Assembly: GCA_010093485.1 (NCBI GenBank)
Contig: MU001498.1
Coordinates: 1,503,126 to 1,567,125, forward strand
DNA: 64,000 nucleotides
Direction of reading: 5' to 3'
DNA from: Karstenula rhodostoma CBS 690.94
Taxonomy: Eukaryota > Ascomycota > Dothideomycetes > Pleosporales > Didymosphaeriaceae
How positions within the stretch are numbered: the stretch's first letter is position 1; every line of letters begins with the position of its first letter. Positions 13,774-33,748 of the stretch are shown here, one piece after another. The notes beneath the pieces were generated by a model. It made no database searches. It was not told the DNA's origin and saw only the letters and a list, made by a program, of their open reading frames with translations. The position numbers were made by a program, and so were the translations under genes.

Positions 13774-13918
13774 GCACGCTTACCCCAGATCGTCATATCC
13801 CGCTGCCTATATCACCATCGGGCCTTTATCTGGACGGTATTCCTCCTTTCTCTTCATCAGCCACACGTCGCACCCGGCCGGTCATACCACATCAGGATAC
13901 GCCTCCATATCATTCAGT

Positions 13919-15793: not shown

Positions 15794-16769
15794 TCACAGC
15801 CTCCCCGTATTCTCCCTCGTATCATTAACATGCAACCCCTCCCTCTCCGCGCCCATCAACCTCGCCAACGTCACCGCCTCCCTCAACGCCTTCCCCAACG
15901 CCCCCCTCACCCCCATCTCCTCCATGACCATAATCCCCCCAATCGTGCACCCCTCGGGACTCGTCCCCATATCGCGCAGCTCCCCGGGCTGAACCCCACT
16001 CTGCAGCAGCGCCGCCGACCCCGCCATGCTCTGGTATATCATGTCCTGGGCGGCCTTCCTCGGCACGCCGACGGCCACGGACGCATCGACGAAGGCGTCG
16101 CAGATGATGGCCCAGAAGGCGGGCGTGGAGCCGCCGACCGCAGACGCGGGGCCCATTAGCTTTGGCGCGAGCTGCACCGTGCGGCCGAGCTGGGTGAAGA
16201 TGGCGGTGCAGGTGTTGACGTGGTGGGCTGGGGTGTGCGGGTCCGGGTCTTCGAGGGCGGTGAGGGATTGGGAGACCTGGGCTGCGACGTTGGGGAGGGC
16301 GCGGAGGATCCAGGTGCGCTCTTCTGGGGCTGGGGCGCCTTGGGCCGCGGATAGGACTCTTTCTAGGGTCGTGCGCGACCAGCCTGCTGCGATGCTGATG
16401 AGGAGTTTGGCTTTGAGGGCCGAGGCGACGGCGGCGTCTTGCAGCGTTGCTGAGACGTCTGTGGGGTCGACGCCTAGGATTACGACTGAGGCGGCTGAGA
16501 TGGCGTGGGCGTTTGCGCCGCGGGAGACGACGAGCGTCCTGGATGCGGTTTCCGAGGGGAACCGCTGGGCTAGGCGTTCTTCTGAGGCGGCGCTGTGCAC
16601 GCACGCTATGTAGTGGGTGAAGGGGAGTCCTGCATCTTTTGGCGCCTCGATCAAGCTCTTTAATATGGCTGTCCCTAGGTTTCCTGGAGTTCCGTGTAAG
16701 CTGATGAGGATACAGTTGAGGGTTTGCTAACTTACCGCAACCAAGAATGCACAGAGTCGAGTCAGACAT
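15794..16769 (-). CDS. Pyrroline-5-carboxylate reductase
   Basis: Reduces P5C to proline with NAD(P)H; some family members also reduce 3-hydroxy-P5C. The two exons are 16736-16769 and 15794-16683, giving 307 residues. The first encodes MSDSTLCILGC, and the splice restores the Rossmann glycine motif GCGNLGTAIL. The C-terminal dimerisation domain carries the family core GPASAVGGSTPAFWAII and the run AAQDMIYQSMAGSAALL, then MGTSPEGCTIGGIMVMEEMGV, matching the conserved PxxV(T)SPGGTT region in modified form. It is the first gene of the proline/hydroxyproline cluster and points away from proline dehydrogenase's start. A CGG-N8-CCG site lies 133 bp upstream. Confidence 0.92.
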
Positions 16770-17335
16770 GTTGGGCGTTCGGGTCTGGCGTTCAATGTGG
16801 TGCTATACGGGAGGGGGGAAATATAACTCTCGAAATACCAGTCGTGGGTTTGGTTATCACTTTTGTTGCGAGCCGGTGTTATCCTGCGGCCGAAGTCGCA
16901 ACGGCTGACACGCCGATTGGGTGTCCTTCCCCACATCGCGCTACGTCACTTTCGTTTACGACTGCATCAATAAACGATGAGCCGGACGTTATCGGTATGC
17001 AAGCAGGTGGACCATCTTTGTGGACCCAGATAACTCTTTGTCCGGAGTGCTTGTGGTGGGTTCTTGGTCTGGGACCATTGATACACTGCCTGAGCCGTTC
17101 GAAGAAATAGCATGGTTTAAATGAATAGATGATATGCTATCTATGTTTGCGAGATAATCTGCGAGTACAATCTCCAGCGTGCAGCTTCCTGTCACAGCTC
17201 AGAGACGGTCGCCAGCCAGAGGAAAGAAGAACACCGTCCATCCCAACCCCCCCAAGGACCTTGAAAACAAAAGAACATCCATCGTGTGGCTCTATGCATG
17301 CTCGTCCGTAAACCTCGTAATACGTAAACCGCTCC
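16770..17335. other. P5C reductase promoter / proline dehydrogenase 3' region
   Basis: This 566-bp gap holds the P5C reductase promoter with one CGG-N8-CCG repeat. I see no gene. Confidence 0.6.
16902..16915. promoter_or_regulatory. CGG-N8-CCG inverted repeat (P5C reductase promoter)
   Basis: CGG, spacer ctgacacg, CCG, 133 bp upstream of the P5C reductase ATG. Zn2Cys6 dimers typically bind inverted CGG triplets at fixed spacing, and this spacing recurs in all cluster promoters. Confidence 0.45.
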
Positions 17336-18868
17336 CTACGTCCGTCCGAACCCCATCCGTCTCCGAATCTCCTTCTTCAACGCCTCAAACTCGTCCGTAG
17401 TCCTCAGCACGGCATCCCGATTCTCCACCGCCCTCCGCAAAAGATACGCCACGCATTCCCCCATGCTACCCCACGTCGAGCACTTGAAAACATCCGGCGC
17501 CTTCCCATCCACACCCCGCTCCTGTAACAGCGAGAAGCCCACCTCGTCAGACATGCCGTGCAGCTGGGCAAAGGCAACCGGCACGGTGGGCATTCCGTCT
17601 TTTTCCCGCTGCGCGTGCAGTCGCTGTGCCGTGATGACGCTCTCCTTATTGTGACTAGCCAGGAAAAGGTTGAGCGCCGGGAACGGCCGCGAAACCCCAA
17701 AGTCCCAGAGTTTCTGATGAAGCGCACCCTCCACGATGCCGTTGTATGCCGCGTCAGTGTCCTCCTTGGTATCGTGGATCAGCGCCCGGTCGTCAGAGAG
17801 GATATACGCGCCGCGCACGAGCTTCAAGCCCAGCGTGAACCCGTCCTTCTCTGCTTCGGCGAGATGCTGCTGTATATACTTAGGCTGGTGCTTCAGATAT
17901 GCTTGGTACGTGTTGTAGATGACGACGGTAGGGTCGCGGTTGAACTTGCGCATGAGCTCGAGCGACGTGCGCGCGATGCCTTTCTGGAAGTACTGCGACT
18001 CTGCGTCGACGATGATCTGGATGCCGCGGTCCTTGCACCTCGTCGCGATCTCGTCGAGCGCTTCCATCATCTGCGGTGGTGGTAGCTCGCCCCTGTGGAA
18101 CGCCGCGCCCACGGCGGCCCCACCGCCTGTCGTCTTGAGCGCGAGGACGTCGCCTTTGTTGATCATGTCGACCGTGGCGAGCGTGCCTACCCGCCACTCC
18201 TCGATCACGGGGTCGTGTGCTGCAATGGGCTCTGCTTTTGCTGCTGGTTCAGCGTGCACGCTTGGCACGTTGCTGTTGTGGTCGAAAACCAGCTCTTTGG
18301 CGTAGGTAAGGATGACCCCCTTGAAGCCGAGGTTGGTTAGAGACTTGCAGCAAGCTTGGGTTTCCTGCTTTGACTCGCCGGCACAGAACTGGTTGTAGAA
18401 GGTCTTTTTGAGAAGGCCGTGGAGGACGGGATTCCGGTCCACGTTGAAAAGGTAGCTGCGGCCTGGCTTCGCGAAGAAAGAGAGCAATTTCAATGAGGGT
18501 ATCAAAAGGTATTTCTTAGAAGATATGGTGGCGATGAAGAAAGAGCGAAGGAGCATCTCGAGGGGCATCTTGGCTCTGGTGATGGGGTTAGCAAGGGCGT
18601 TTGCGTTGTCTCCACTGATGGTGCAGACCAGAATAAAGTGGCATGAGCAGACTTACAGTGGTGCATCGGATGCTGCAGCCTCTGGGGGCAATACTTTTGT
18701 TGTTTGTGGAGTCATTGCCGTATCATTGTTCATGTGTGTGTGTGCTCCAACGCTCCTCGTCGGCGGAATGACACCAGTATGCCACCGTACCTGGATGAAA
18801 GATACAGTGGCGAACCCATCCTTTGGTAATCTCCTTGCCGTTGCAGCGCCGATGCGGTATGGAAGCAT
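17336..18868 (-). CDS. Proline (or hydroxyproline) dehydrogenase, mitochondrial
   Basis: FAD enzyme that oxidises L-proline to P5C in mitochondria; related enzymes oxidise trans-4-hydroxy-L-proline. The two exons are 18657-18868 and 17336-18575, giving 483 residues. The N-terminus MLPYRIGAATARRLPK is a plausible mitochondrial presequence. Barrel signatures seen are YNTYQAYLK, LVRGAYI, ASHNKESV and the substrate-binding helix AYLLRRAVENRDAV. The position equivalent to E. coli PutA Tyr540, twelve residues before the Tyr of AYLLRR, is Cys (KCSTWGSM). That residue is Tyr in human PRODH and Ser in human PRODH2 (hydroxyproline dehydrogenase). Whether Cys is usual in fungal enzymes I cannot check. 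Two CGG-type inverted repeats lie upstream. Confidence 0.93.
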
Positions 18869-19111
18869 GGTTACTCAGGGAAGCTCTCTTGGCGGACGAG
18901 CGAAGAAATGTTCAGTGAGCAAAACAGCTTGGAGAGCAACAGGCAGACCGTGACCATGAGATAACCATCCTCATGTACTTTGTGCATCCGCCACCTAGCC
19001 TCACAAAGCGACAACCCCGCATCTGCTTCTCCAGCGAGTTCGGTGCTGCTGTGGACACCGTAGACCAACCCGTGACCCATCGCATGCTCCTCCCGATAAG
19101 CAGACAAACAA

Positions 19112-19125
19112 CGGGCGGGCAGCCG
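19112..19125. promoter_or_regulatory. CGG-N8-CCG inverted repeat (proline dehydrogenase promoter)
   Basis: CGG, spacer gcgggcag, CCG, about 244 bp upstream of the proline dehydrogenase ATG. Candidate site of the cluster's Zn2Cys6 regulator. Confidence 0.45.
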
Positions 19126-19209
19126 ATTCGCATAGCGCCGCGTTTTAGCTTGCCACAACCCCCCAAGTGGGTGACACGTGTAGTGCGCGATGGATAATGG
19201 AATCACGAT

Positions 19210-19226
19210 CCGGGCGACGGCTCCGG
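19210..19226. promoter_or_regulatory. CCGG-N9-CCGG repeat
   Basis: Two CCGG tetramers separated by 9 bp, about 342 bp upstream of the proline dehydrogenase ATG. Similar to the recurrent CGG-N8-CCG form but with one more base of spacing. Confidence 0.3.
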
Positions 19227-19840: not shown

Positions 19841-20769
19841 TCACTTCCCCTCTCCAACCCTACCCCTAAACCAACCCCTCAACCCCGTATTCACAATCCC
19901 CCCAACCCCAAACGCCGGCACAATCCTCGCACACCTCACCGCCGTCGTCCCCACCAACCCCCTCCGTAACCGCCTCGCCCGTTCCCCCGCCTCCACCTTC
20001 CCAGGATTCGCGTACAGATCCAGACCCAGCATGTGCACAGGCGTCGCCACCACCTGCGACAGCATGGGCACAAGCAGCTGCGCCGCCGCCATCTGCGCCG
20101 CGGGATCGGCGAGGGGGACGCGGTGCGCGAGCATGGGCGGGAGGGTGATGGAGCCGAGGATGGTGAGGGCGTCGCGCGCGAGGAAGGTCGCGGCTACGGC
20201 TTTGGGGAACTTGGTTGGCGATTGCGGCGGCGGTGGTGGTTTGGTGGGGGGCGTGTTGACGGGGCCGGTGGGCGGCGGGGTGGGACGCCCGCCGAACGTC
20301 TGCACGAAGCGGATGTCTTTCCAGACGCCGAGCGGCACGTTGACGCTGCATGTTGCGATGAAGGTGAGGGATTTGGCTAGGATTTCGTGGGAGCTGTCCA
20401 TGAAGGTGCCGGTGAGGGTGGTGGCGGTGTTGGCGGTCGTGTAGGTGACCGCGTAGAGCGTCCACATGTAGAAGAAGGGTTTGGCGACGAAGAAGCGCTT
20501 TGGGTGGCGGAAGGTGCAGAGGATGTTTTCTTTCAGGGCGGTCGAGAGGGGCCGCGTGGTTGAGGAGACATTTTCAACGACGGCTCTGTGGGAGGTTACA
20601 ATGAGGACATGGGATCTGGGAGAGAACTGCACCTGTCTATTGCCGTGAGGATGGGCGATATGAGTGTGGCTGATAGGAAGGCTGCAGATACATCGCCTGC
20701 TAGGTAGCCAGGTATCTGATGATTCCGCCAACCTCGATTGAAGCTCTGCGTTTCGACCAGCTGCGTCAT
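19841..20769 (-). CDS. Uncharacterised multi-pass membrane protein within the cluster
   Basis: The two exons are 20633-20769 and 19841-20585 (GTGCAG..CCACAG intron), about 293 residues from the ATG at 20769. The joined N-terminus reads GWRNHQIPGYLAGDVSAAFL and continues SPILTAIDRAVVENVSS. About five or six hydrophobic segments follow, including FFYMWTLYAVTYTTANTATT, the segment before SVNVPLGVWKDIRFV, and FLARDALTILGSITLPPML. A proline-rich loop (PPPTGPVNTPPTKPPPPPQ) interrupts the middle. I recognise the general pattern of a conserved ascomycete membrane protein without assigned function, but cannot name a family. The position between proline dehydrogenase and an FAD oxidase makes a mitochondrial transport role conceivable; this is inference only. 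More 5' exons are possible. Confidence 0.7.
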
Positions 20770-21322
20770 AAGAACTGTGACAAAGCGAAGAAAGACCAGC
20801 TTCCAAATTCCAACAATATCAAACCAAGTCGTTCACAATTGCTGAAGCGGGTACAACCAGTCGCCGCGGTAAACGTGTACGTAACGCCAACCAAGACGGT
20901 CACCAGCTAATATGATGAGAGTCCTCGCAGAAGCCCGTTCTCGTATCCACTGCCCTGTTCCAGTCGCGCATCGTGACGTCCGTTAACGGCATGCAACCGC
21001 TCGGGTGAGACGAAGCTGCACGGTAAGCATTCCGTGGGTCCAATCCACCTGCATGATGATAATACGTCGGCAAGCCTCCCGTAGGGGCACCCCGCTGCCG
21101 CCCCACCGCTAGCGCTCATCCCCCACAGTTTTGTATCGTCGGTTCCTACTAGCCAGATTATATTCCGATGATTCCGATGCCGGTCGAGCATCGCCTGACG
21201 ACAGGTGAGATTGTTGCAGCGTCACTTCGCTGGTTGTTCAAAAAGTAGTGCGTGGCCCGTAGCTTCAACGACATCTCTGTGACACATTCTTGCACTTCCA
21301 TTCCATTCAACAGCGGCTCACA
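20770..21322. other. Divergent promoter region (membrane protein / FAD oxidase)
   Basis: This 553-bp region lies between divergent start codons. It holds the inverted repeat CACGG-N8-CCGTG at 21019-21036 and a CGG-N7-CCG near 20990. I see no gene. Confidence 0.6.
21019..21036. promoter_or_regulatory. Extended CGG-N8-CCG inverted repeat (FAD oxidase / membrane protein promoter)
   Basis: CACGG, spacer taagcatt, CCGTG. This is the most symmetrical copy of the recurrent motif. It is about 289 bp before the FAD oxidase ATG and 252 bp before the divergent membrane-protein ATG, so it could serve both. Confidence 0.5.
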
Positions 21323-22691
21323 ATGACTCTCCCCAAGAGCGAACCCATTGCCATCATCGGCGGCGGTGCATTTGGCCTGTCCACAGCACTCGAGCTCTCA
21401 AGAAATGGCTACACCAACATCACAGTTTTCGAGAAGGACGAGGAGATCCCGTCGCGCTGGTCCGCTGCAAACGACCTCAACAAGATTGCACGTGCAGAGT
21501 ATGAGGACGACTGGTACACTGATCTCGCAATCGTATGTCTTCCCCTCGAACAGACCGTCTCGAAAACCCTTCTAACATGCAAACCAGGAAGCAATAAAAG
21601 AATGGCAAACGCCCTTCTACGCGCCTTACTTCCACCGCGTCGGCTTCCTGAACTGCTGCTCGGAGGCCGCGTCGCAAAAGGCCATCGACACAATGGAGCG
21701 GTTTAAGGCGGCTGCAGAGCGCAGCGCAGTCATGAAGCCCTTCGTCCACAGGGTCAGCGACCGCAAAGACCTCCTCCAGGCGTGCTGGCAGTTCACCGGC
21801 GCCCTGCCCGGCTGGAAAGGCTACATCAACACATACGACGGCTATGTGCACTCCGCGAATGCGCTGCGCGGCGTCTACCGTGCTGCGAGGTCTAACGGTG
21901 TAAGGTTTTTCCTCGGCGAGAAGGTCGGCGCAGTTGAGGAGGTTGTCTACGAGAACACCAGCCGGGGCAGGCGGAGCACGGGTGTGCGAACCAAAGATGG
22001 CCGCGTACATCCCGCATCGCTCGTCGTCGTCGCCGTAGGAGCAGCTGCACACAAGATACTGCCCGAGCTGGGTACCAACGTATCCGCCAAGTCGTGGTCC
22101 GTCGCCCACGTGCGCCTCACCGACGACGAGACGGCAGCCCTCCGCGGCATCCCCGTTGTCTATGCCCGCGACCTGGGCTTCTTCTTCGAGCCGGACCAAA
22201 AGACCAACCTCCTCAAGTTGTGCCCCATGGGCGGCGGCTACGTCAACACAGATCCTGCGAGCGGCGTGTCGAAAGCCCCAGAGGGGGTCAACCGCTTTGT
22301 GCCGTACGAGGACGAGCTCAAGATGAAGGAGCTGCTGCGCCAGACGCTGCCACACCTTGCGGACCGGCCGTTGGTGGAGAAGTCACTGTGCTGGTTCGCC
22401 GATACCGACGACTCGGACTTCATCATCGACTACGTGCCCAAGACTTCATCGTCAGTCATGGTCATGACCGGCGATTCTGGTCACGGTTTCAAGATGTTTC
22501 CCATTGTCGGCCGCTGGGTCCGGGATCTGTTGAATGCATCGGGAGGGCAACAGCCGATCAAGAGGTGGCGATGGAGGGAACCGAAGCCCGTCAACGGCGA
22601 AACGAGTCAGGATGCCGATGTAAGCTGGCGGGTGGGAGATATCCGGGAACTGCGCGATTTGTCGGAGCACCCAATGAAGGCGAAGTTGTAA
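21323..22691 (+). CDS. FAD-dependent amino-acid/amine oxidase (DAO superfamily, sarcosine/pipecolate/fructosyl-amine oxidase type)
   Basis: The two exons are 21323-21532 and 21588-22691 (55-nt intron), giving 437 residues. The N-terminal Rossmann motif is IAIIGGGAFGLSTALELS, and FEKDE carries the acidic residue that binds the FAD ribose. The C-terminal flavin segment is TGDSGHGFKMFPIVG, as in the monomeric sarcosine oxidase group. LCWFADTDDSDFIIDYVP places a Cys where this group attaches FAD covalently. Family members oxidise secondary amines and imino acids such as sarcosine, pipecolate, N-methyl amino acids and fructosyl amino acids. In this cluster a proline-like imino acid (hydroxyproline isomer or N-methylproline) is an attractive but unproven substrate. 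No C-terminal peroxisomal SKL-type signal is obvious (ends AKL, a weak PTS1-like tripeptide). Confidence 0.88.
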
Positions 22692-23003: not shown

Positions 23004-25693
23004 CTAAATCGGGTGTTGCTGCGCATCTACCATTGGATACGTATCCATAGTCGCGAACGTATTGAACCAATCTGTCGTGCCCAGATCCATCGACTCCGCC
23101 ACAGCAAGAATCTGCTCTGCCGTCAGATCGTCGCCGAACCCGCTGCTCTCATCGCTAAACGCAGTGTACATCCCCATAGCTTCGGGGCTCATCATCGTCC
23201 GCGGCGATTGCATATCGCGAGGCATAGGGTATCCCTCCGGTGGTGGTTGGTGCTGGCCAATGATGGGTTGCTGTTGTGGTTGACGCGGAAGAGGTGCGAA
23301 GGGTTGGAGCGGTGGGTATTGCTGCGGCGTTCGGTTTGCAGAGTATTCGGAAAGCATCATCTCCAGCTTGCGTAGCTCGGCACACCTGAATTCGGCAATT
23401 TTGTTCCCGTTTGACACCATGGTGTCGAGGAAAGCGAAGGCTTTGTTGAGCCAGGCGGAACTATCTTCGGATAGGGTATCATCAACGAATCGTATCAGCA
23501 CCAGGACCATTGTCGAGACAAAGAGGGAATCTAAGTCCCACGGGAGAAAGGTCTCTATTGCATTCGTCAGCTTCAGCGAACTTGGAAATACGCTGCATTG
23601 GTCGTACCTAATAGGTCTTGGTCTTGCAGGCTTTCGAGGATGTTCAGAATCTTCTGTGAAGCATCTAGCGACATGCTTAATAGAGGCCTGATCTTGCGAG
23701 AAGACACCAGCGGGCCCACCTCCTTTGGAGACTCGAACGCTTTCTTCAGACAACAGAACAATAACGGTCTTGTGGTTACAACGATTGTCTGCGCAAAGCG
23801 ATCAGCGGGGAGCCCTACGTAAAAGCCTCGTCGAGTTTACAGGTGTGTGCATAATATACCGAGGGCTGACGTACCTGATAATACATTAAGTGTAGATGCG
23901 CAGGCATTCTCGATATGCCGCCGAACCGCTCGACTGAATGCAAAGGGAAAGAATTCCGTAGTTCCTCTGCGATTGCTGCCATATCGTTGAGCAACGCCTT
24001 TATGCTGATAACGAACTTCTTGCGGAGGCGACCTTTCGGGCCGTAAACACCTGCATATTGTCAGCCTCTGGCCTATAAACAACCTCATTGCTACTATGTT
24101 TGAGAAAGACAGTGACCAGAGCTCATTTGACGTACTTCTCGCTATATCCGCATATATACGCGCGAGCTTGATCTGCATCCTCAGTGCCGCTGTCCGCTGA
24201 ACAGAGCCAGGGAAGTGTGTAAGCTGACACGTTATCTCGTCATCTCGTATCGACTGTGGGACACCCATCTGTGAACTCATCTGTCGGTCGAGGATATAGA
24301 TGGACCACCAAATCTTGCGACATCGCTGAACGAATGCCTCGCCTAGCTCTCTCGCTGGCATGTCGGTGTGCATACCCTCTGCTAATGCTATTCGCATCGC
24401 CTGGCCTATCTGGGTGGTACTCAGCAATTGTTGCAAAGGTGCAAGCAGGTGAAACTTACTGTTACATGTGCTGCGTTGCGTGAGTCTAGTGCTTGCAGGT
24501 ACAGAGCAATGCCGCACAGTATCTCTGTTGCCACGAGTGGTTCTTGGCACAATCGGTTGGTATCGGGGAGTAGCTGAAGAGCGTGTACGAAGAAGTCGGC
24601 CCCGGGCGGCTTAGATTCTCTATGTTTGCGTTGTACGAGAGTCCTCCCGAAGGCGATGATCAGTAGAAACTGAACGTACCACAAGCTATCTTGAAGCTTG
24701 TTAGGGTTTGCATTGCCGTAGAAGGCGTGCAGTTTGGCGTTGAACTCCTCTTCGTCAAACAGATGTACCAACTGCCCACAGTGGAACTTGACGGCGTTGA
24801 TGAGAAATATAGCGTAGTCGATGCTTGGAATGACAGGTGCATTCGTCTCGGGCAGGCTACGAGTGCCGTCCTGCCATTCGCATGCGTGTCAGCAAGGTAC
24901 GAACAGCTAAAGCTTTGTATACATTGGGTTGGAATGACGTACCCATGGAAGTTTGTAGGCCGAGCCATCGAACAGGAACTCTGTTCCTGGTAGAGGAGTA
25001 CTGCGGATATGCTGATGAACCACATTCAATACCTGGCCATGGAAAGACCAATTGGACGAAGTCCCTAGGTAGAAAGTTCTCCCGGAAGATGCGGCCAAGA
25101 ACTTCGATGGCGATTCAAGCAAGGGGTTTGTCAATTCATGACTTTCCCCATTCCCGTGATCTGTCTTTGGAGAATCCTCCCGCGTCTCTGCAGGACTCGA
25201 TCGAGAGGTCTCCATAGGCTCATGGTCACCGCTGTGAGGGGGCTGGAGAGGATGTTCCCGGCGCGAGCTGCCAGCCTGAACTGGTTCTTCGCCATGTTCT
25301 CGAGATTGTTGAGGCAGCTCATGGGTCGTTTCTATGTGGCTTAGACTTCGCTCCAAGCGAGCGACTTTTTGCTGCAGATCGGAAAGATAGCTATCAACGG
25401 TCAGCTTGAAGCACGTCGCTGCAGACCACAATATGTCCGGCCAAATGCCCCGAGAACCGAAAAAGGCCTGACTTACCCCTGCGTTACCAGCACCTTGTTG
25501 TCCCGGTCGTCAAAAACGCAGCTCAGGCTCCTCTTCGTACAGTTCACACAAGGCTGCAGTCCCGAACACTTGATCTTCTGTCGGCGACACCGTGAGCACC
25601 TTCACTGATAAGCGGATGCACGTCCATCGGAAGGGTTCCCTACGCGTTGGAAGATCGCTTAGAAGCGCGTCGCTGTTCACTCGAGTTCGCCAT
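23004..25693 (-). CDS. Zn(II)2Cys6 transcription factor, Put3-like
   Basis: Likely pathway-specific regulator of the surrounding catabolic genes. Exon 1 starts at 25693 (MANSSEQRRASKRSSN). A ~44-nt intron ending in AAG is needed to reach the zinc cluster ACSRCRRQKIKCSG followed by LQPCVNCTKRSLSCVF, spacing CX2CX6CX5CX2CX6C. A second intron (GTAAGT..GATAG) precedes YLSDLQQKVARLERSL, a coiled-coil dimerisation helix. The order KVLV-TQGYLSDLQQKV resembles yeast Put3 after its zinc cluster. The central fungal-specific domain includes IGQAMRIALAEGMH and KIWWSIYILDRQMSSQMG. The C-terminus is acidic and Gln/Pro-rich, ending VDAQQHPI. Several further introns are present; I did not fix every boundary. 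A CGG-N8-CCG site lies about 360 bp upstream, so autoregulation is possible. Confidence 0.87.
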
Positions 25694-26131
25694 TGTGTGC
25701 ATTGCAACAGCAAGGGTGTCACATCGCTAGCCGCAGCAATACAACGGTCCCACGGTATGCGGATATGGGCGGCGTGGGCTGTGAGGTCAGGCGCGTCACG
25801 TTACGAGATAGACGGGAAGTTGCGGGGAAAGCCCAACACTAGCCGAACGTGGCTGCCTGGCGCGTCCCGTTGTCTCCTCTCTGAGTTTTCTCCCTCTTCC
25901 TCCGTTTCCTTCAACAACCGCTTGCTCGCAACAGATGCTTTGAATTTACACGTCATCTATCAGGCAACCTGCAGGCTCAGATCTACTTGTGGAGCCTTAT
26001 CGTTCCCCCAGGAAAATGCGGCGCTTTCAAGTATAGCGCGTGCATGGGCCACCGGTCGCCCTCCCGATCCCAACATCGCACCGGCGCTGTCCAGATATCG
26101 CGATTACTCTGGCTGGCTGGCCGATGGAGAA
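25694..26131. other. Transcription factor promoter / aminotransferase 3' region
   Basis: 438 bp with a CGG-N8-CCG repeat at 26053-26066. I see no gene. Confidence 0.55.
26053..26066. promoter_or_regulatory. CGG-N8-CCG inverted repeat (regulator promoter)
   Basis: CGG, spacer tcgccctc, CCG, about 360 bp upstream of the transcription-factor ATG and just beyond the aminotransferase stop. May mediate autoregulation. Confidence 0.4.
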
Positions 26132-27464
26132 TCACAAGTGCGATGACGGCGAGCTCGTCACCTTGACGAGCGCCGAAGCTACGTGCTCGATGTTGCTCCG
26201 ACTCAGCCCCGCCACGTTGATGCGCCCGTTCTGCAGCATGTGGATGTGGAACTCGGCGGCGAGGCGCTCGCATTGCTGCGGGCTCAGCGGGAGGAAGCAA
26301 AACAGGCCGGTGGACGAGAGAATCGACCCCCAGTTGCCTTGAGCCTTTGAGCATGTCAGAATTGGTGGAATGTCATCAAGTAGAGCGCAATTGGGGGTAC
26401 TCACCTCACGCTTCTCGACCAGCTCCGCATACAGTGCCCTCCTGTTGTCCGCAAGCCGTTTCTGAATCGTCGCCAGCTCCGTCTGCCAGTCCTGCCTTAG
26501 CTCGTCGTTGCTGAGCACAATATCCACGAGCCGCGCGCCATACGCCGGACTCGACGAGAACTCCCATCGAATCAAGCATCTCAACCTCTCATACACCTTC
26601 GCCGCAACCTCCCTATCCCCGCTCACAGCATGCAGCACACCAACCCTCTCTCCATACAGCCCAAAGTTCTTCGAGAACGACTGACAAGCAAGAAGCTCGA
26701 AGCCCCTTCTTGCAAACAGCCGCAGACCATACGCGTCGTCGTCTAGCGACGCCCCCAGGCCCTGGTACGCCATGTCGAACAAGGGGAATAGCTTCCTCGC
26801 CTCCATCGCGTCAGCCAGCTCGTCCCACTGCGCGCGCGAGAAGTCCGCGCCAGATGGGTTGTGGCAGCAGCCCTGCAGCACGAATATGCTCCCTTCATCC
26901 GCCGTCCTCGTCGCATCGAGCACAGAGGTGAAATCTACCGTTCCCGTTGAGGCGTCGTAGTGCTTGTACGTCACCACCTCGAGCCCAACGAGATTAAACA
27001 GCGGGACGTAGTTACCCCACGCGGGGGTGCCGACGTAGACTTTCTTCCCCTTGAACGCAGGCGTGCGGGCGAGGAAGAGCGCGCCGAGGTGGATAGCACC
27101 CGTGCCGGAGATGGCTTGTACAGACGTCGCTCTCCCCGAAGATATGACATCTGCCTCCCATCCGAACAGCACTTTCGCAGCATTGGCCAGGAATCCTGCG
27201 TTGCCGGTTGTCACTTCATAGTCGTGGTTCGCGTCTTGCCGTGCGAGGATGCGTTTTGCCTGGGTTCTTGTGATTAGACTCTCACTGCGACTTGTGGGCG
27301 GGTATACCCACCGCCTTCAGCGCCCCCAGCTCATGATACTGCCCCCTCTCATTCCTGTACACGCCCACGCCGAGATCGACCTTCTCAGACGCAGTGTCTG
27401 CCCGCACCCGCTGCGAGAGCTGATACACGGGGTCGGCGGGGCTGGGGAGAACGCTGCGGAACAT
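26132..27464 (-). CDS. Aspartate-type aminotransferase (class I, PLP)
   Basis: PLP enzyme of the aspartate aminotransferase family. In hydroxyproline breakdown such an enzyme converts 4-hydroxyglutamate to 4-hydroxy-2-oxoglutarate. The three exons are 27312-27464, 26405-27259 and 26132-26344, giving 406 residues. The N-terminus is VDLGVGVYRNERGQ, the cofactor ring segment FVLQGCCHNPSGADF, then DMAYQGLGASLDDDAY, and the PLP lysine lies in QSFSKNFGLYGERVGV. The start MFRSVLPSPADPVYQL is preferred; an in-frame ATG at 27512 would add 16 residues. No mitochondrial presequence is evident, so the product is probably cytosolic. The second intron (60 nt) is a multiple of three without a stop, so retention would add 20 residues. 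A CGG-N8-CCG site lies 165 bp upstream. Confidence 0.92.
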
Positions 27465-27993
27465 GCTAGCAGTTGCGGAAAAGCTGAATGCAGGAAACGG
27501 TAAGGTAATCAACAGAGTCTGGCTATCCAGCGCTTATACCTCCGTGCATGTATACATACCTCCTAGACTACCCTACTCTAGCCGTGTTTGACATCCGAGC
27601 AATATATGTGGGACCTGAGCTGTACGCCCGGGATACCATCCGAGGTCCCGCGTACTCGCGGACGCGGGGAAAATCGTCGAGTGGCGATCGGGGGCTCAGC
27701 GATTATTGTGGCTCTGGCCGTGCGTTGTTCGCGCTTTACCCTCTGGGGGTTGCCGTACTGTGGCACTGAAGTAGGAATGTTGAGTAGCCAACTTTACGCC
27801 TGACCAAAGCTGATCTAGAAACCAGGACATGACAACATGCCGTTACAAGTGGGTCCCGTGACTCTGATTGCGATTGTATAATCCATGCACGTCTATCGTC
27901 TATCGTCTATCGATACTCTCTCCGTGCGTCAAAAACCAGCACTGGAGCACAGAACCCCAGCCCACTCCGACTCTACCCGTCAAGTCCCGCTTC
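27465..27993. other. Aminotransferase promoter / permease 3' region
   Basis: 529 bp with a CGG-N8-CCG repeat (27629-27642) and a short tandem repeat of the 7-mer ctatcgt at about 27892-27914. I see no gene. Confidence 0.55.
27629..27642. promoter_or_regulatory. CGG-N8-CCG inverted repeat (aminotransferase promoter)
   Basis: CGG, spacer gataccat, CCG, about 165 bp upstream of the aminotransferase ATG. Confidence 0.45.
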
Positions 27994-29875
27994 TCACTTC
28001 TCCTCATCCACCTTCCTCCGCTTCGTAAAGCAGCTCCCGAACATATTCCCCACATCCTTCCAGAACCCCACATGCTCCTCCAGCGCATCCTCATACGCAT
28101 CGATAATCGGCTTATCCCATATCAAATCCGCCTCGCTCGCCTTGATGAACTTGGTCTTCTTCCACAGCTTCCACCCCACGAACAGCACCGGGTCCACCAG
28201 CAGCATCATGTAGTACGTGAAGAACGCATCGATGGTGAAGTTCCCGGGCAGGAACGTAGTGTACCCGTAGCAGGTAACGACACCGATCAAAAACGCGAGG
28301 GGTATGTATGCCGACCAGGGTTGGAAGTGGCCGAAGTAGGGCAGGCTGCGGCGGTCGAGGCCCTGTGCCTTGCACGCGCGGTAGAAGAAGATGAAGTTGA
28401 TGCAGATGACGATGTAGTCGATGATTTGGGCGCCGGTGATGATGTTTGTGAGCCAGGTGAGGACTTTGGAGGAGCCCGAGGAGGCGTTGAGGAAGGCAAG
28501 GAAGGGGAACAGGGTGGTGATGCAGAGGCAGTAGATGGGGACGCCGGCTTTGGTGCACTTGCGGAGGAAGCGGGGCGCTTGGCCTTCGATGGCGAGGCCG
28601 TAGAGGGAGCGCGTGCCGTAGTACGTGTAGGCGTTGCCGGCGGAGAAGATGGAGGTTACAAGGAGGGCGTTGGTGAGGTGGGGGAGGCCTTCGATGCCTA
28701 GGTCTGGGAGAGGTCAGTTTGGGTACTCGAGGGAGGATGGGGGACGGGGACGTACTGTTCATAGCGATGACGTAGGGGGAGGCTGCTGCAGTGCCGGCGC
28801 CGTCGGACTCGCCGTTGAAGATGTCGAGGAGAGTCTTGTTGTTGTATGGGATGACAATACCGACGCACAGCGCGCTGCCGATGAAGAACAGACCGAAACG
28901 TGCGTAAGTGGCCTTGAATGCCTGCTTGAGGTACTTTCGCGGACTCTTGACCTCGCCAGCAACCATGGACACGTACTCGGGGCCGACGACGGTAAAAGCC
29001 GCACTCCATAGGGCACCGAGGAATCCCTCGAACCGTCCAAGAGGGCCCGTGGTGATGTTTTCAGCGAAGGCGCCCGGATTTTTCCAGTAGCGGAAGCCAT
29101 ACGCGTCACGTTTTGGATTGCCGCCGACCATGGTGATGAAGGTGAAAGAGAAAAGCATGAGCAGGAGGAAGACCTTCCCGAGGGCAAGCCAGAACTCGCA
29201 CTCTCCGTACCACTTGACCACAAAAGCGTTGATGCAGAAATAGAGCACAATGCATGCTGCCACAACAGCTTCCACGGGTATATCGTCGCGCCAGAAGGAC
29301 AAGACAAGGTTCAGTGCGGTAATCTCAAAGGGGATAAGAATGGCCTCGTAAATGAAGAAGTCTGTAGTGATTAGTATCGTCCACTAGCCGCAGGGATGAC
29401 GGAACTTACTCCACCCGATCATGAAGCCCAGAGCCTCGTCGACCCATTTTCCAGACATGCGGATGAAACCACCGGTGACGGGCATGTAGGAGCTCATCTC
29501 GGCTTGGCAGTTGTTGACCAGTCCCAGCATGCAGGTGTAGATGGTGTAGGCGAGAAATAGAGACCCGGGGCCGCCCTTGATCAGACCGCTGGATATAGAG
29601 ACGAAGGTTGCTGTTCCAATAGATCCACCTGAGAAAGACAAGTCAGTACATGGTCCACACTTGATGCATTGCCCCGGGAAGGACTCGGAGGCTCTTGCTG
29701 TGGTCTGGGAGGACTCACCGATAGCAATCAATTGCAGCTGACGATTCCCCAGATGTCGCTGGAGTTCGTCTGCATTGCCGACATGGCCCAATCTCTGCTC
29801 GCCGGTAGTCTCGACTGGGTAGAGATCCCCGTCGGTTGAGACATTGAAGACCTTCTCGGTCTTGTTGCCCTCCAT
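27994..29875 (-). CDS. Amino-acid permease (APC/YAT family), probable proline or hydroxyproline permease
   Basis: Plasma-membrane proton-coupled amino-acid importer. Four exons give about 575 residues starting MEGNKTEKVFNVSTDGD at 29875. Splices seen: after LQLIAIG to GGSIGTATFVSI; after GFMIGW to the segment NFFIYEAILIPFEITALNLV; and AMN to NLGIEGLPHLTNALL. About twelve hydrophobic segments are present. Family signatures include the first-helix GGSIGTATFVSISSGLIKGG, YMPVTGGFIRMSGKWVDEAL, and the middle segment VGPEYVSMVAGEVKSPRKY. The cytosolic tail is lysine-rich, ending KRRKVDEEK. The closest role by context is that of A. nidulans PrnB (proline permease of a proline cluster); substrate is inferred, not read from sequence. 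Confidence 0.9.
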
Positions 29876-30445
29876 CGTGAGAGGACTCCGCAAAACAACA
29901 CTACACAAAATTGGATGGTAATGAGAGGAAAGACGAGTGGAGAGAGTGGGGATGGAAAGCTGGGGAAAGCGGTCCCAGGCCCAGTATACATATCCTTCAC
30001 CAAGGACGGCCTGGCCAGGCTCTTGCACATGGCATCGTGACCAAGTCTGGTACGGCTAGTCTCTTCACGGCGACTTAGTTGAGATGGATGTGGGCAGGAA
30101 GGGCTCCGGCGATGGCATCCCTGTCACGAACCGCTAGGTAGGTAGCGGCACGGTATCAAATCGCGGGGATCGACGGCGGACCCGGCGCGATGGTAGATGA
30201 CGGCAACGGACCCGCAATGCGGATACGGGTGTGGCTTGAAAGTAGGTCGGCAGCCACTGATATGCGCTGGTTTGGGGTTCGGGGAAGCTGATACGCCAGT
30301 CACGGAACATATGGGGTAGTTCTATTGAATTATCAAATGGTACCGAATAGTTGAACATTTAGATCTTATCTATGTCGCAGATATCTAGGGAAGAACCGAA
30401 GTAGAAAACAATCAGAGATCGAAAATGGCATGAAGGACACAATCG
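29876..30445. other. Permease promoter / aldolase 3' region
   Basis: 570 bp with a CGG-N8-CCG repeat at 30201-30214. Several further GC-rich triplets cluster at 30120-30220. I see no gene. Confidence 0.55.
30201..30214. promoter_or_regulatory. CGG-N8-CCG inverted repeat (permease promoter)
   Basis: CGG, spacer caacggac, CCG, about 326 bp upstream of the permease ATG. Confidence 0.4.
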
Positions 30446-31417
30446 CTACAATCGCGCGGAGATCTTTGCGTTGGAGCCCAAGCCCTGTTCAATCTTAGCT
30501 ACTTCGGCCATTGTAGACTTGACTTTCTCCTTGATAGGTGCTGCAGGCTCAAAGTAGGGCTTGCGCGGTTTCAGAAGCGCCACAGCGTTATCGATGCCTG
30601 CGTATCGGGCGCTGTGTATCGCAGTGGCGTACTTGGTCGCGGCAATGCCGGCCTTGATAGGCTGCTCGGCTAATGCAGCCTTTTGGTGTAGGGCCAGAGC
30701 CTCATCGTTCCGTCCCTGCTGGTATAGCTTGTAGATCTGCGCAATGGTTCTAGGGAAGACGTTGGCGAACGCCGCTATGCAGCCACTGGACCCAGAGGTT
30801 AGGCCGCCTAGGATGAAATCAGACTGGCCGCCAAAGACTGCGAAGCGCTCCTTTGGTAGGACAGCCGCCAGACGGGTGATTTTGGCGACAGAGCCGCAAG
30901 TCAGCTTGACGCCGACGATGTTGGAGTGGCGCTGGGCCAAGGTGGCGATGAGATCGGACTGGAGGTCAACGCCATTGCAGACCCCGGGAAAGTTGTAGAT
31001 GATGATGGGCAACTGGCTCTTCCGGGCAACGTCGTCGTAGAAGGCTTCCACAACCTGTGGTGTGGTTGCAGCTCCAAAGTAGGCGGGCGGGAGCAGAAGC
31101 ACCGAGTTGGCGCCCGCGTCGGCTGCATCCGCGATGTGTTCCAGAACCTGGCGTGTGGAATGGCCTCCTACGCCTGCCATGAGGGGAAAGTGCGGACCGA
31201 CCGCACGCCTTGCCGTCACGATGAGCGCCTTGCGCTCCTCGCGGGTTAGCAGAAATGTCTCTGCATTCGTCCCCAGGATAACGAGCCCGGCGAGGCCCGT
31301 CGTCGACAGGTAGTGAAAGTACCGTGCCTGCGCATCAAGTGCGAGCTCGTCGGTGTCGGGATCGAAGAAGGTAACCGCAGGGCACCAGACACCGCTGGGA
31401 GGCACACTACTCGGCAT
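30446..31417 (-). CDS. DapA-family aldolase, probable 4-hydroxy-2-oxoglutarate aldolase
   Basis: Class I (Schiff-base) aldolase of the dihydrodipicolinate synthase superfamily. The single exon encodes 323 residues. The pyruvate-binding loop is GTNAETFLL, the catalytic Tyr is in IIIYNFPGVCNG, and the Schiff-base Lys is in NIVGVKLTCGSV; FGGQSDFILGGLTSGSSGCI is the later barrel segment. Fungi make lysine by the aminoadipate route, so DapA homologues here are catabolic. Known roles of relatives are 4-hydroxy-2-oxoglutarate cleavage to glyoxylate and pyruvate (HOGA1) and sugar-acid aldolases. Beside proline dehydrogenase, P5C dehydrogenase and an aspartate aminotransferase, the HOGA role is the best fit. 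It is divergent from P5C dehydrogenase with 540 bp between ATGs. Confidence 0.87.
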   Translation of the reverse strand: MPSSVPPSGVWCPAVTFFDPDTDELALDAQARYFHYLSTTGLAGLVILGTNAETFLLTREERKALIVTARRAVGPHFPLMAGVGGHSTRQVLEHIADAADAGANSVLLLPPAYFGAATTPQVVEAFYDDVARKSQLPIIIYNFPGVCNGVDLQSDLIATLAQRHSNIVGVKLTCGSVAKITRLAAVLPKERFAVFGGQSDFILGGLTSGSSGCIAAFANVFPRTIAQIYKLYQQGRNDEALALHQKAALAEQPIKAGIAATKYATAIHSARYAGIDNAVALLKPRKPYFEPAAPIKEKVKSTMAEVAKIEQGLGSNAKISARL

Positions 31418-31435
31418 GGTTCGGCTAGTGAAGAT

Positions 31436-31461
31436 GGACAGTGAATGTGGACAGTGAATGT
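31436..31461 (+). repeat. 13-bp direct repeat ggacagtgaatgt x2
   Basis: Two perfect adjacent copies start 19 bp upstream of the aldolase ATG, within the likely 5' UTR or core promoter. Confidence 0.8.
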
Positions 31462-31509
31462 GAGGAGCAGAACAGCGTGACTGGGAGGGCAGTGACGGCG
31501 GGAACTCAG

Positions 31510-31740
31510 CTACAAAAGGCGACGATCAGTGCCAACTTCTGTACAAACACCGCGAATTTCCGCCTCGCCGGACGCGTTCTCGCAGCCATCGTGGGCCTTG
31601 ACGATGCTCGGCACGCCTGCCGGAAGGATGACAGCTTGGGTGGATGCGAAGCGGTGCTCCACAATCTCGCAAGCGTAACGCTCGGCTGCATCCCACGCGC
31701 TACGGCCGGCCTCCCGATCGCGCACGGGCTTCGTGTGCAT
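31510..31740 (-). CDS. Possible small protein, 76 aa, between aldolase and P5C dehydrogenase
   Basis: An ATG-started ORF with protein-like composition, containing DAAERYACEIVEHRFASTQ and VPSIVKAHDGCENASGEAE. I do not recognise a family. It sits entirely inside the shared promoter region of two genes. It could be a relic of a lost gene, an upstream exon or a chance ORF. Low confidence. Confidence 0.2.
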   Translation of the reverse strand: MHTKPVRDREAGRSAWDAAERYACEIVEHRFASTQAVILPAGVPSIVKAHDGCENASGEAEIRGVCTEVGTDRRLL

Positions 31741-31829
31741 GCATGCATATTGCTACCCGATGAGGAGCAGCTTGGCGTGGAGCGCACCATGCCTCACACA
31801 GTCTATTGAATGAGGGGTGTGTTCTACCC

Positions 31830-31843
31830 CGGCTCTGATTCCG
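31830..31843. promoter_or_regulatory. CGG-N8-CCG inverted repeat (P5C dehydrogenase / aldolase promoter)
   Basis: CGG, spacer ctctgatt, CCG, about 115 bp upstream of the P5C dehydrogenase ATG; shared with the divergent aldolase. Confidence 0.45.
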
Positions 31844-31957
31844 TACCGTGGGCAACCGTTACTGCGACTTCGGCTTGCTGTGGATTCGCTGCTTAGCAAT
31901 GGAATACTTCAAGGGCGCTGCGCTGCTCACAGCGTTCAATCCACATACCCGCACATC

Positions 31958-33748
31958 ATGTCTACCTCACTTCTGCGACTAAGGCCTATTGCCTCCAGGA
32001 ACGCTGCTCTGCGTCTCCGCACCTCCACCCAGATCCGCACAAAGACCACGGCCAATGCCACGGTTCCATTCCAGCTTCCCCCGGAGCGCAATGAGCCCAA
32101 CCCGAACTACGAGAAGGGCTCGCCTGAACGGGCCGAGGTTGAAAAGGCCCTGAAAGAGCTCCAGGCTCAAATCCCACTCAAGTCCAATGTCTTCATCAAC
32201 GGTGTCGCACAGCAATCGAGCAAGTCATGGGATCAGGTGCTGCCTGCAGAGCACAAGACCGTCTTCACCAACAACCCCTTGACTTCCAAGGAGCAAGTTT
32301 CCGCTGCAATTGAGGCCGCACTCAAGGCGAAGAAGTCGTGGCAAGAGACACCCTTCGTCGACCGTGCCGCCATCTTCATCAAGGCTGCAGAGCTCGTTTC
32401 CAGAAAGTACCGCTACAAGCTCATCGCTGCCACCATGCTTGGCCAGGGCAAGAACATCTGGCAGGGTGAGGTCGATGCCGCTGCCGAGCTGGCTGACTTC
32501 TTCCGTCTCAATACCAACTACGCTGCCGAGCTTCTAGGCAGGCAACCCTACCGCGGCTCTGACGGCATGTGGTCTCGTCTGGACTACCGACCACTTGAGG
32601 GTTTCGTGTATGCTGTGTCGCCCTTCAACTTCACTGCCATCGGCGGTAACCTGATTTCGGGACCTGCCATCATGGGTAATGTCGTTCTCTGGAAGCCGTC
32701 CCCCTCCAACGTCTACGCCAGCCAGATTGTGTACGAGATCCTCCTTGAGGCTGGTCTTCCCCCGGATGTCATCCAGTTTATCCCCGGCGACCCAGAGGAG
32801 ATCAACGACGTTATCCTGAACCACCGCGAGTTCGCTGGTCTCGGCTTCGTCGGCTCGTCAGATGTTTTCCGCCAGCTGCAGGCCAAGGTCGGCCAGGAAA
32901 TCGGCAAGCACACCTACCGCGAGTTCCCCCGTCTCGTCGGTGAGACCTCCGGCAAGAACTTCACTCTCATCCACCCGTCCGCCGACATCCCATCTGCCGC
33001 CAAGCACACTATCCGCGGCTCCTTCGAATACCAGGGCCAGAAGTGCTCAGCCACATCCCGCCTCTACCTCCCTGAATCCCGGTCCAAGGAGTTCCTCGAC
33101 GCCTTCCTCGCAGACGTGAAGACCATCACCCAGGGCAACCCGCACGAGGACCTCGCCGCCTTCATGGGCCCGGTAATCCACCGCAACTCATTTGAGAAAA
33201 TCAAAGCCGTCATCGACGAGAGCAACAAGGATTCCTCGCTCAAGCTGCTCGCGGGCGGCACCTACGACGACGCGGAGGGCTTCTACGTCAAGCCCACCGT
33301 CTACCTCGCCGACTCGCCCGACCACAAGCTCTTCAACTACGAGATCTTCGGCCCTGTGCTGGCCATCCACGTGTACCCTGATTCGCAGTGGCCCGCCATC
33401 CTCGAGAAGGTAGACCAGGCGGGCGGCGGGTTCGCCCTCACCGGTGCCGTGTTTGCGAACTCGCGCGCGGCGATCCGCGAGGCCGAGGATGCGCTGCGGT
33501 ACTCGGCAGGAAACTTTTATATCAGTAAGTCTTTCAAGCACCCCTTTCTCGTGGGCGGTATCTAACACAGTATAGACTGCAAGACCACCGCTGCACTCAT
33601 CGGCCAGCAGAGCTTCGGCGGCAGCCGCGGGTCCGGCACAAACGACAAGGCGGGCAGTCCTAACACGCTGCTGCGCTTCACGACGCCGCGGCTCATCAAG
33701 GAGGAGTTCTTCCCGCAGACGGACTTCTGGTATCCATCCAACAAGTAG
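31958..33748 (+). CDS. Delta-1-pyrroline-5-carboxylate dehydrogenase, mitochondrial
   Basis: Oxidises glutamate semialdehyde (from P5C) to glutamate with NAD; the same enzyme class turns 3-hydroxy-P5C into 4-hydroxyglutamate. The two exons are 31958-33524 and 33576-33748 (51-nt intron), giving 579 residues. The start at 31958 gives MSTSLLRLRPIASRNAALRL, a good mitochondrial presequence; the in-frame extension to 31817 lacks such a feature. ALDH signatures are FNFTAIGGNLISGPAIMGN, the general-base Glu in LVGETSGKNF and the nucleophile Cys in FEYQGQKCSATSRLY. The splice restores the ALDH4 C-terminal segment NFYINCKTTAALIGQQSFGG. It acts directly after proline dehydrogenase. Confidence 0.95.

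What the first reader, a model, noticed from the sequence alone, without database searches (positions are those of the whole stretch)
15794..33748. Gene cluster matching a complete proline plus trans-4-hydroxyproline catabolic pathway
Seen: P5C reductase, proline dehydrogenase, FAD imino/amine-type oxidase, Put3-like Zn2Cys6 regulator, aspartate-type aminotransferase, amino-acid permease, DapA-family aldolase and P5C dehydrogenase lie within 18 kb with one unknown membrane protein. Known: animals degrade hydroxyproline by hydroxyproline dehydrogenase, P5C dehydrogenase (ALDH4A1), aspartate aminotransferase and 4-hydroxy-2-oxoglutarate aldolase (HOGA1, a DapA homologue). All four classes are here. 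The A. nidulans prn cluster has regulator, proline oxidase, permease and P5C dehydrogenase; the aminotransferase, aldolase, FAD oxidase and reductase are additions. Inference: the cluster handles hydroxyproline from plant or animal structural proteins, yielding glyoxylate and pyruvate.
Basis: partly seen in the sequence, partly recalled or inferred. Interest (0 to 1): 0.88.

Follow-up and report, generated by a model that had tools for sequence, protein, structure and literature searches.

The report
Fungal gene cluster for hydroxyproline breakdown
A fungus carries, side by side, what look like the genes for the animal-style route that turns the collagen and plant-wall amino acid hydroxyproline into pyruvate and glyoxylate, but its last two enzymes bear address labels for a different cell compartment than in animals.

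Summary
The genome is Karstenula rhodostoma (Pleosporales). I judge it a dedicated trans-4-hydroxyproline cluster rather than a proline cluster. (1) Its PRODH has Cys where the proline-gatekeeper Tyr sits; the unlinked C1 paralog keeps Tyr; of the 120 closest relatives 119 could be scored: 117 Cys, 2 Ser, 0 Tyr. (2) Its aldolase makes sense only for a hydroxylated substrate; a second cluster on C15 has the same enzyme set with an unrelated HpcH/HpaI-family match instead. (3) Ten CGG-N8-CCG sites cover seven of seven promoter intervals (about 1 expected; 1 of 2000 shuffles matches). (4) Linkage recurs in relatives. New twist: aminotransferase (SHL) and aldolase (ARL) carry peroxisomal PTS1 signals; 47 of 51 related aldolases with a C-terminal extension end in a PTS1-like tripeptide, and malate synthase ends SKL. 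In vertebrates all four steps are mitochondrial (PMC8779045, passages). The pathway thus appears split, with glyoxylate made in peroxisomes. Nothing was assayed.

The parts
15794..16769 (-). P5C reductase paralog (two exons, no presequence seen)
   Evidence: Pfam PF14748/PF03807; ATG at 16769; downstream of PRODH, same strand
17336..18868 (-). PRODH-family hydroxyproline dehydrogenase candidate, 496 aa in two exons, presequence-like N terminus
   Evidence: PF01619; splice model; first exon matches the P. minitans model P0242 but is absent from the annotated P0241
17468..17494 (-). DVFKCSTWG: Cys at the position of PutA Tyr540
19841..20769 (-). 293-aa membrane protein, no Pfam or PDB match; hydropathy suggests about six segments, carrier-like layout (inference)
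   Evidence: AlphaFold of exon 2 failed
21323..22691 (+). FAD amine oxidase of the fructosyl-amine-oxidase family, C terminus ...KAKL (PTS1)
   Evidence: PF01266; best solved relative fructosyl amine oxidase 5oc3, 174 bits; tail
23004..25630 (-). Zn2Cys6 transcription factor (motif at 25518-25598; Fungal_trans domain)
   Evidence: 5' end approximate, exons not modelled
26132..27464 (-). Aspartate-aminotransferase-family enzyme, C terminus ...SSHL (PTS1), no presequence seen
   Evidence: PF00155; mitochondrial AspAT 1ama, 311 bits; tail
27994..29875 (-). Amino-acid permease, several exons
   Evidence: PF00324; ends
30446..31417 (-). DapA-family aldolase, candidate 4-hydroxy-2-oxoglutarate aldolase, C terminus ...SARL (PTS1)
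   Evidence: PF00701; 3qfe 465 bits, human HOGA1 3s5o 102 bits, Lys at IVGVKLTCG; tail
31958..33748 (+). ALDH4-type P5C dehydrogenase with presequence-like N terminus, no PTS1
   Evidence: PF00171; 4oe4 490 bits and 3v9g 419 bits, both named mitochondrial P5C dehydrogenase; C-terminal exon
16902..16915 (.). CGG-N8-CCG, promoter of P5CR
19112..19125 (.). CGG-N8-CCG, promoter of PRODH
21021..21034 (.). CGG-N8-CCG, membrane protein / FAD oxidase divergent promoter (site 1)
21068..21081 (.). CGG-N8-CCG, membrane protein / FAD oxidase divergent promoter (site 2)
26053..26066 (.). CGG-N8-CCG, promoter of the regulator gene
27629..27642 (.). CGG-N8-CCG, promoter of the aminotransferase
30201..30214 (.). 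CGG-N8-CCG, promoter of the permease
31609..31622 (.). CGG-N8-CCG, aldolase / P5CDH divergent promoter (site 1)
31703..31716 (.). CGG-N8-CCG, aldolase / P5CDH divergent promoter (site 2)
31830..31843 (.). CGG-N8-CCG, aldolase / P5CDH divergent promoter (site 3)

Best explanation
A dedicated trans-4-hydroxyproline (Hyp) catabolic cluster of the animal type, split between two organelles. The permease takes up Hyp. In the mitochondrion the Cys-type PRODH oxidises Hyp to 3-hydroxy-P5C and the ALDH4-type enzyme makes 4-hydroxyglutamate. In the peroxisome the PTS1-bearing aminotransferase makes 4-hydroxy-2-oxoglutarate and the PTS1-bearing aldolase splits it to pyruvate and glyoxylate, next to malate synthase. 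The Zn2Cys6 factor switches the unit on through CGG-N8-CCG. P5CR probably returns leaked (hydroxy-)P5C to (hydroxy)proline. Shown by sequence: gene families, the Tyr-to-Cys change, PTS1 tails and their retention in many relatives, the motif, and recurrent linkage. Inferred: substrates, localisation, the link of regulator to motif, and the roles of P5CR, FAD oxidase and membrane protein.
For: All four enzyme classes by nearest solved relatives: ALDH4, AspAT, DapA/HOGA1 class, PRODH/PutA. Cys or Ser at the PutA Tyr540 position: 117 Cys and 2 Ser of 119 scored of 120 relatives; the unlinked C1 copy has Tyr, the C15 copies Cys and Ser; Tyr540 is reported to enforce proline over hydroxyproline (PMC3718742, passages). 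C15 cluster: PRODH, ALDH4, P5CR, Zn2Cys6 factor and aminotransferase, with an HpcH/HpaI match and no DapA match. PTS1-like tails: 47 of 51 aldolases with an extension of 6 or more residues (shuffled tails mean 0.87, max 5) and 22 of 65 aminotransferases that passed the full-length filter (mean 0.84, max 5). The C4 aldolase paralog and the C6 AspAT lack PTS1; malate synthase ends SKL. CGG-N8-CCG: 10 sites in 7 of 7 promoter intervals. Linkage in relatives.
Against: No activity, expression or localisation data. PTS1 is not universal: 69 of the 120 aldolases lack the extension (7 of these 69 end PTS1-like) and 43 of 65 filtered aminotransferases end otherwise; in Corynespora only the aminotransferase has PTS1 and in Byssothecium neither. 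By score the aldolase is no closer to human HOGA1 (102 bits) than to a structure named DHDPS (6t3t, 107) or to YagE (104). If the first two enzymes are mitochondrial, a hydroxyglutamate exporter is needed and none is proven. CGG-N8-CCG shows no excess over other spacings at the C15 region and could not be checked in relatives. The C15 HpcH/HpaI match holds one in-frame stop, an intron or a break. FAD oxidase and P5CR are not needed by the route.
Confidence: 0.75

Rival explanations
1. Plain proline catabolism (prn-like) with accessory genes: PRODH and P5CDH degrade proline, the aminotransferase handles glutamate, and the aldolase is a hitch-hiker acting on sugar acids.
Against: The gatekeeper Tyr is lost while an unlinked Tyr-bearing PRODH exists; proline needs no aldolase, yet aldolase and aminotransferase share contigs in relatives, often carry PTS1-like tails, share the promoter motif, and the C15 cluster has a match to an unrelated aldolase family.
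Confidence: 0.1
2. A bacterial-type (lhp) route: epimerisation to D-Hyp, oxidation by the FAD oxidase, the DapA protein as pyrroline-4-hydroxy-2-carboxylate deaminase, and the ALDH as 2-oxoglutarate-semialdehyde dehydrogenase.
For: An FAD oxidase, a DapA-family protein and an ALDH are present; the genome has one proline-racemase-family match (C4:816396-817478).
Against: That match is on another contig, so no epimerase is linked; the ALDH is ALDH4-type; the FAD oxidase is closest to fructosyl-amine oxidases; the route has no place for PRODH or an aminotransferase; the HpcH/HpaI family matched at C15 is known for aldolases. Pathway details are recalled.
Confidence: 0.05
3. A hydroxylated-imino-acid cluster for a related substrate (cis-4-hydroxyproline, hydroxypipecolate, or a hydroxyproline released from a fungal or plant metabolite), with the FAD oxidase removing an N-substituent first.
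For: The FAD oxidase of the fructosyl-amine family and P5CR, a family that can also reduce P6C to pipecolate (PMC12899673, passages), are unexplained by the plain route.
Against: Each step of the plain trans-4-Hyp route has a candidate enzyme here, and trans-4-Hyp is the commonest such substrate (general knowledge).
Confidence: 0.1

Closest known systems
Vertebrate trans-4-hydroxyproline pathway (PRODH2/HYPDH, ALDH4A1, GOT2, HOGA1)
   Same: Four matching enzyme classes in the same logical order; class I DapA-fold aldolase; PRODH paralog changed at the Tyr540 position (Ser in PRODH2 is recalled, not from a call).
   Different: Genes clustered with a regulator and permease; separate paralogs at all four steps; the last two carry peroxisomal signals, whereas all four enzymes are mitochondrial in vertebrates (PMC8779045, passages).
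Aspergillus nidulans prn cluster
   Same: Zn2Cys6 regulator, PRODH-family enzyme, permease, P5CDH.
   Different: Cys instead of Tyr in PRODH; aminotransferase, aldolase, P5CR, FAD oxidase and membrane protein added; the Tyr-type PRODH of this genome is elsewhere (C1).
Second cluster in the same genome, C15:39-55 kb
   Same: PRODH (Cys type), ALDH4, P5CR, Zn2Cys6 factor, aminotransferase.
   Different: HpcH/HpaI (PF03328) match instead of DapA; two PRODH and two ALDH4 matches; no PTS1 on aminotransferase (KSSM) or on the HpcH/HpaI reading frame (DARS); no match to this FAD oxidase there; beside RIP-like AT-rich DNA.
Bacterial hydroxyproline routes (lhp; HypD plus ProC in Clostridioides)
   Same: Handle trans-4-Hyp; a proC homolog lies next to hypD in C. 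difficile (PMC12899673, passages).
   Different: Different chemistry; no epimerase linked here; HypD was not searched for.

Membership tests
Animal-type trans-4-hydroxyproline pathway | PRODH-family dehydrogenase changed at the Tyr540 gatekeeper | tested here: met
   Cys at 17468-17494; column aligned to Tyr of a solved PutA
Animal-type trans-4-hydroxyproline pathway | ALDH4-type (hydroxy-)P5C dehydrogenase | tested here: met
   Best relatives are mitochondrial P5C dehydrogenases 4oe4 (490 bits) and 3v9g (419 bits)
Animal-type trans-4-hydroxyproline pathway | AspAT-type enzyme with both dicarboxylate-binding Arg and the PLP Lys | tested here: met
   Alignment to 1ama keeps the Arg of 'LIR', the Lys of 'SKNFGLYGER' and the Arg of 'GRINVAG'; residue roles recalled
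Animal-type trans-4-hydroxyproline pathway | HOGA-type class I aldolase with Schiff-base Lys and active-site Tyr | tested here: met
   GVKLTCG vs GMKDSGG, IIYNFPG vs VLYSVPA, GTNAE vs GSNGE of HOGA1; residue roles recalled; these features are shared with other DapA-family aldolases
Animal-type trans-4-hydroxyproline pathway | All four steps mitochondrial | tested here: not met
   Aldolase ends SARL and aminotransferase SSHL, PTS1 signals kept in many relatives; by signal only
Animal-type trans-4-hydroxyproline pathway | Activity on Hyp and 4-hydroxy-2-oxoglutarate | not testable with these tools
   No assay possible
A. nidulans prn-type proline cluster | Proline-type (Tyr) PRODH in the cluster | tested here: not met
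   Cys in cluster copy, Tyr in unlinked C1 copy
A. nidulans prn-type proline cluster | Regulator, permease, PRODH and P5CDH linked | tested here: met
Bacterial lhp route | Hydroxyproline 2-epimerase linked | tested here: not met
   The one proline-racemase-family match is on C4, unlinked
PRODH-P5CR fusion enzyme | One open reading frame spanning both | tested here: not met
   PRODH has its own stop at 17336 and P5CR its own ATG at 16769; the annotated fusion skips the PRODH RR..EN helix; no transcript data

The most novel reading that the evidence does not exclude
In Pleosporales the hydroxyproline pathway is a regulon split between mitochondria and peroxisomes: fast-changing C-terminal extensions keep PTS1 signals on the last two enzymes so that glyoxylate is released beside malate synthase. 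Hydroxyproline dehydrogenases arose from PRODH more than once by losing the gatekeeper Tyr (Cys or Ser), and two unrelated aldolase folds were recruited to the same last step in two clusters of one genome.
Probability: 0.6. Interest if true: 0.75.

Novelty: new variant of a known kind. Interest (0 to 1): 0.64.

Why it matters
Hydroxyproline is abundant in plant cell-wall extensins and animal collagen (general knowledge), and fungi consume it (A. niger lowered hydroxyproline in medium with hydrolysed collagen; PMC12333218, passages), yet the papers listed by my searches gave none naming fungal genes for it (open-licence PMC only, judged from titles and abstract starts, long lists seen only in part; one search was swamped by generic terms). 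If right, the cluster gives a complete, testable gene set, a residue test to tell hydroxyproline dehydrogenases from proline dehydrogenases, and a natural case of moving glyoxylate production to the organelle that consumes it. Compartment choice for glyoxylate also underlies primary hyperoxaluria in people (PMC8779045, passages).

Tried and rejected
PRODH-P5CR fusion enzyme: 20 of the 120 listed PRODH relatives, the window's own annotated protein P0241 among them, carry PRODH and P5CR domains in one model. I reject it as gene-model error: P0241 jumps from 'VFKCSTWG' at about 17.5 kb to 'GNLG' at about 16.7 kb, dropping the PRODH RR..EN helix, although the intact ORF runs to its own stop at 17336; the junctions differ between species. 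They do suggest that the two genes are neighbours on one strand in those species. No transcript was available to settle it.

Put3-type CGG-N10-CCG (spacing recalled): 0 sites in the cluster promoters. N8 was found by scanning spacings (0-14), so shuffles were scored over all spacings scanned: 0 of 2000 reached 9 sites in the first set of six intervals, 1 of 2000 reached 10 in the final seven, which add the P5CR promoter.

Membrane protein: no Pfam match at E up to 10, no PDB match, one further match on C23; AlphaFold of exon 2 alone gave mean pLDDT 39, so no fold search was run. The carrier-like layout is my reading of hydropathy.

phmmer of PRODH against PDB found nothing; a 16-row profile reached PutA. 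DHDPS function for the aldolase was set aside because the Arg of the DHDPS 'YNIPSRCG' stretch is not kept ('YNFPGVCNG'; role of that Arg recalled); the score alone does not exclude it. No gene tree was built, so 'more than once' in the novel case is a reading of divergence, not a test.

The aminotransferase full-length filter missed at least P0122, which ends SRL.
Full report
Setting. The window is C7:1503126-1567125 of a 44.3 Mb genome. Proteins on a contig of the same length (2,013,694) are named Karstenula rhodostoma CBS 690.94 in public sources: Ascomycota, Pleosporales, Didymosphaeriaceae.

Observation. Nearest solved relatives: ALDH to mitochondrial P5C dehydrogenases (4oe4, 490 bits); aminotransferase to mitochondrial AspAT (1ama, 311 bits), keeping the PLP lysine and the two arginines that hold dicarboxylates (roles recalled); aldolase to 3qfe (465 bits, named only as a putative DHDPS-family protein) and then, far behind, to a DHDPS-named structure (6t3t, 107), YagE (104) and human HOGA1 (102), with the Schiff-base lysine and active-site tyrosine of HOGA1 aligned; FAD oxidase to fructosyl amine oxidase 5oc3 (174 bits). 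Sequence therefore gives the aldolase's class, not its substrate; the substrate is argued from context.

Hydroxyproline rather than proline. In E. [quoted passage not shown] 2009; passages seen; the original was not held). The clustered PRODH has Cys there ('VFKCSTWG'); a profile alignment to a solved PutA puts this Cys opposite the Tyr of 'LYAPYG' (that this Tyr is the E. coli Tyr540 equivalent rests on the recalled E. coli motif). Of the best 120 relatives (of 1839 found among the 7995 candidates scored), 104 matched my pattern at once (102 Cys, 2 Ser) and 15 of the other 16, read directly, have Cys; one, P0293, could not be scored. Total 117 Cys, 2 Ser, 0 Tyr of 119. In the same genome the unlinked C1 copy has Tyr ('VYKYSVWG'), whereas the two copies on C15 have Cys and Ser. 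The second C15 copy has in-frame stops that may be introns and could be a pseudogene. As the relatives were ranked by similarity to a Cys-bearing query, their Cys shows a conserved clade, not independent events; the C15 copies (36% and 27% identical in the aligned parts) are the more independent evidence. No tree was built. That human PRODH2 has Ser here is recalled.

The aldolase is the discriminating step: only a 4-hydroxylated substrate yields 4-hydroxy-2-oxoglutarate. A second cluster, C15:39-55 kb, holds PRODH (two matches), ALDH4 (two), P5CR, a Zn2Cys6 factor and the same kind of aminotransferase. The aldolase search found no DapA match on C15, but the HpcH/HpaI family (PF03328) matches between the two ALDH genes at C15:44098-44607 (62.6 bits, cut-off 25, one in-frame stop that may be an intron). 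An unrelated aldolase family in the matching cluster is what a retro-aldol last step predicts. One Fusarium aminotransferase model (P0230) also carries PF03328; whether that is a real fusion or two neighbouring genes was not tested.

Compartments. PRODH and the ALDH begin with presequence-like N termini and lack PTS1 (judged by eye, no predictor run). The PRODH first exon is my model: the annotated P0241 starts inside exon 2, while the P. minitans model P0242 has a closely similar N terminus. The aminotransferase ends SSHL, the aldolase SARL, the FAD oxidase KAKL. Among the best 120 aldolases (of 1695), 51 have a C-terminal extension of 6 or more residues; 47 of these 51 end in [SAC][KRHNQS][LMI] and 26 in the strict [SAC][KRH][LM], against 0.87 and 0.29 expected from shuffled tails (maxima 5 and 4 in 2000). 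Of the 69 without the extension, 7 match the relaxed and 3 the strict form. Of the best 120 aminotransferases (of 6172), 65 passed a full-length filter; 22 match relaxed and 15 strict (0.84 and 0.33 expected, shuffling the 63 tails of 4 or more residues); over all 120, truncated models included, the numbers are 25 and 17. Among the 17 filtered ones in P0121-P0150, 11 end in the strict form, 2 in SNL, 1 in PRL and 3 in none. Controls in the same genome: the 58% identical C4 aldolase paralog stops without an extension, the C6 AspAT-like protein ends KVTG, the C15 aminotransferase ends KSSM and the C15 HpcH/HpaI frame DARS. Malate synthase, matched at one place in the genome, ends ASKL after a last intron that I placed by eye. 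Exceptions: Corynespora has PTS1 only on the aminotransferase, Byssothecium on neither. In vertebrates all four enzymes are mitochondrial (PMC8779045, passages). The split predicts an exporter for 4-hydroxyglutamate; the unknown membrane protein is a candidate by position only.

Regulation. CGG-N8-CCG occurs 23 times in the window; 10 fall in the 4,232 bases of the seven cluster promoter intervals, at least one in each (0.92 expected from the rest of the window; shuffled mean 1.33; 1 of 2000 shuffles reached 10 at any spacing 0-20, and 1 of 2000 had any one spacing in all seven). No other spacing exceeded 3. A Zn2Cys6 dimer reading inverted CGG repeats is the usual explanation (general knowledge). 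Over C15:38-56 kb as a whole N8 occurs 6 times, no more than spacings 3, 9 and 12 (its promoters were not taken apart), and relatives could not be checked.

Conservation. By longest-contig length, 22 contigs hold at least two of the three families searched and 8 hold all three, the window's own included (from the best 120 of each family only); long contigs do not by themselves prove adjacency. Stronger are two contigs of about 30 kb (30,260 and 30,313 bases) that each hold two families, and locus numbers: Paraconiothyrium brasiliense aldolase 003064 and PRODH 003070, and Paraphaeosphaeria minitans aminotransferase 002787 and PRODH 002791, differ by just the number of genes seen in the window, if numbers follow gene order; Kalmusia has aldolase 001802, aminotransferase 001804, PRODH 001809 (one gene more); Diaporthe australafricana has aldolase 005424 and aminotransferase 005418. 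P5CR next to PRODH is suggested by 20 models annotated as fusions, which I judge to be annotation errors.

Open parts. P5CR: the family reduces P5C, and E. coli ProC oxidises both 4-hydroxyproline isomers with 150- to 300-fold lower kcat/KM than proline (PMC12899673, passages); a salvage role for leaked hydroxy-P5C is my inference. FAD oxidase: its nearest solved relatives act on N-fructosyl amines; freeing Hyp from N-adducts is a guess.

Verdict. It is a new variant of a known pathway, with a compartment split and two aldolase solutions, none of it tested at the bench.

Noticed in passing
window 13760-15295(+) and 34680-36428(+): The cluster is flanked on both sides by cation-efflux-family genes (PF01545), as if it sat between two relatives of one transporter.
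   Followed up: no
window 36820-39327(+): Alpha-L-fucosidase gene (PF01120) just beyond the cluster.
   Followed up: no
C15:26000-38000 of the same genome (L049, L050): GC 0.21-0.26 stretch with strong RIP-type dinucleotide bias beside the second cluster, containing what reads like an amino-acid-permease remnant at 36403-36867 (by eye).
   Followed up: partly
P0230, Fusarium oxysporum: Aminotransferase model carrying PF03328 (HpcH/HpaI) in one protein; fusion or merged neighbours, untested.
   Followed up: no
P0241 and 19 other public proteins: Public PRODH-P5CR 'fusion' annotations; those read here cut into or skip the PRODH C-terminal part: probable gene-model errors.
   Followed up: yes
C4:816396-817478: Single proline-racemase-family match, unlinked to either cluster.
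   Followed up: no
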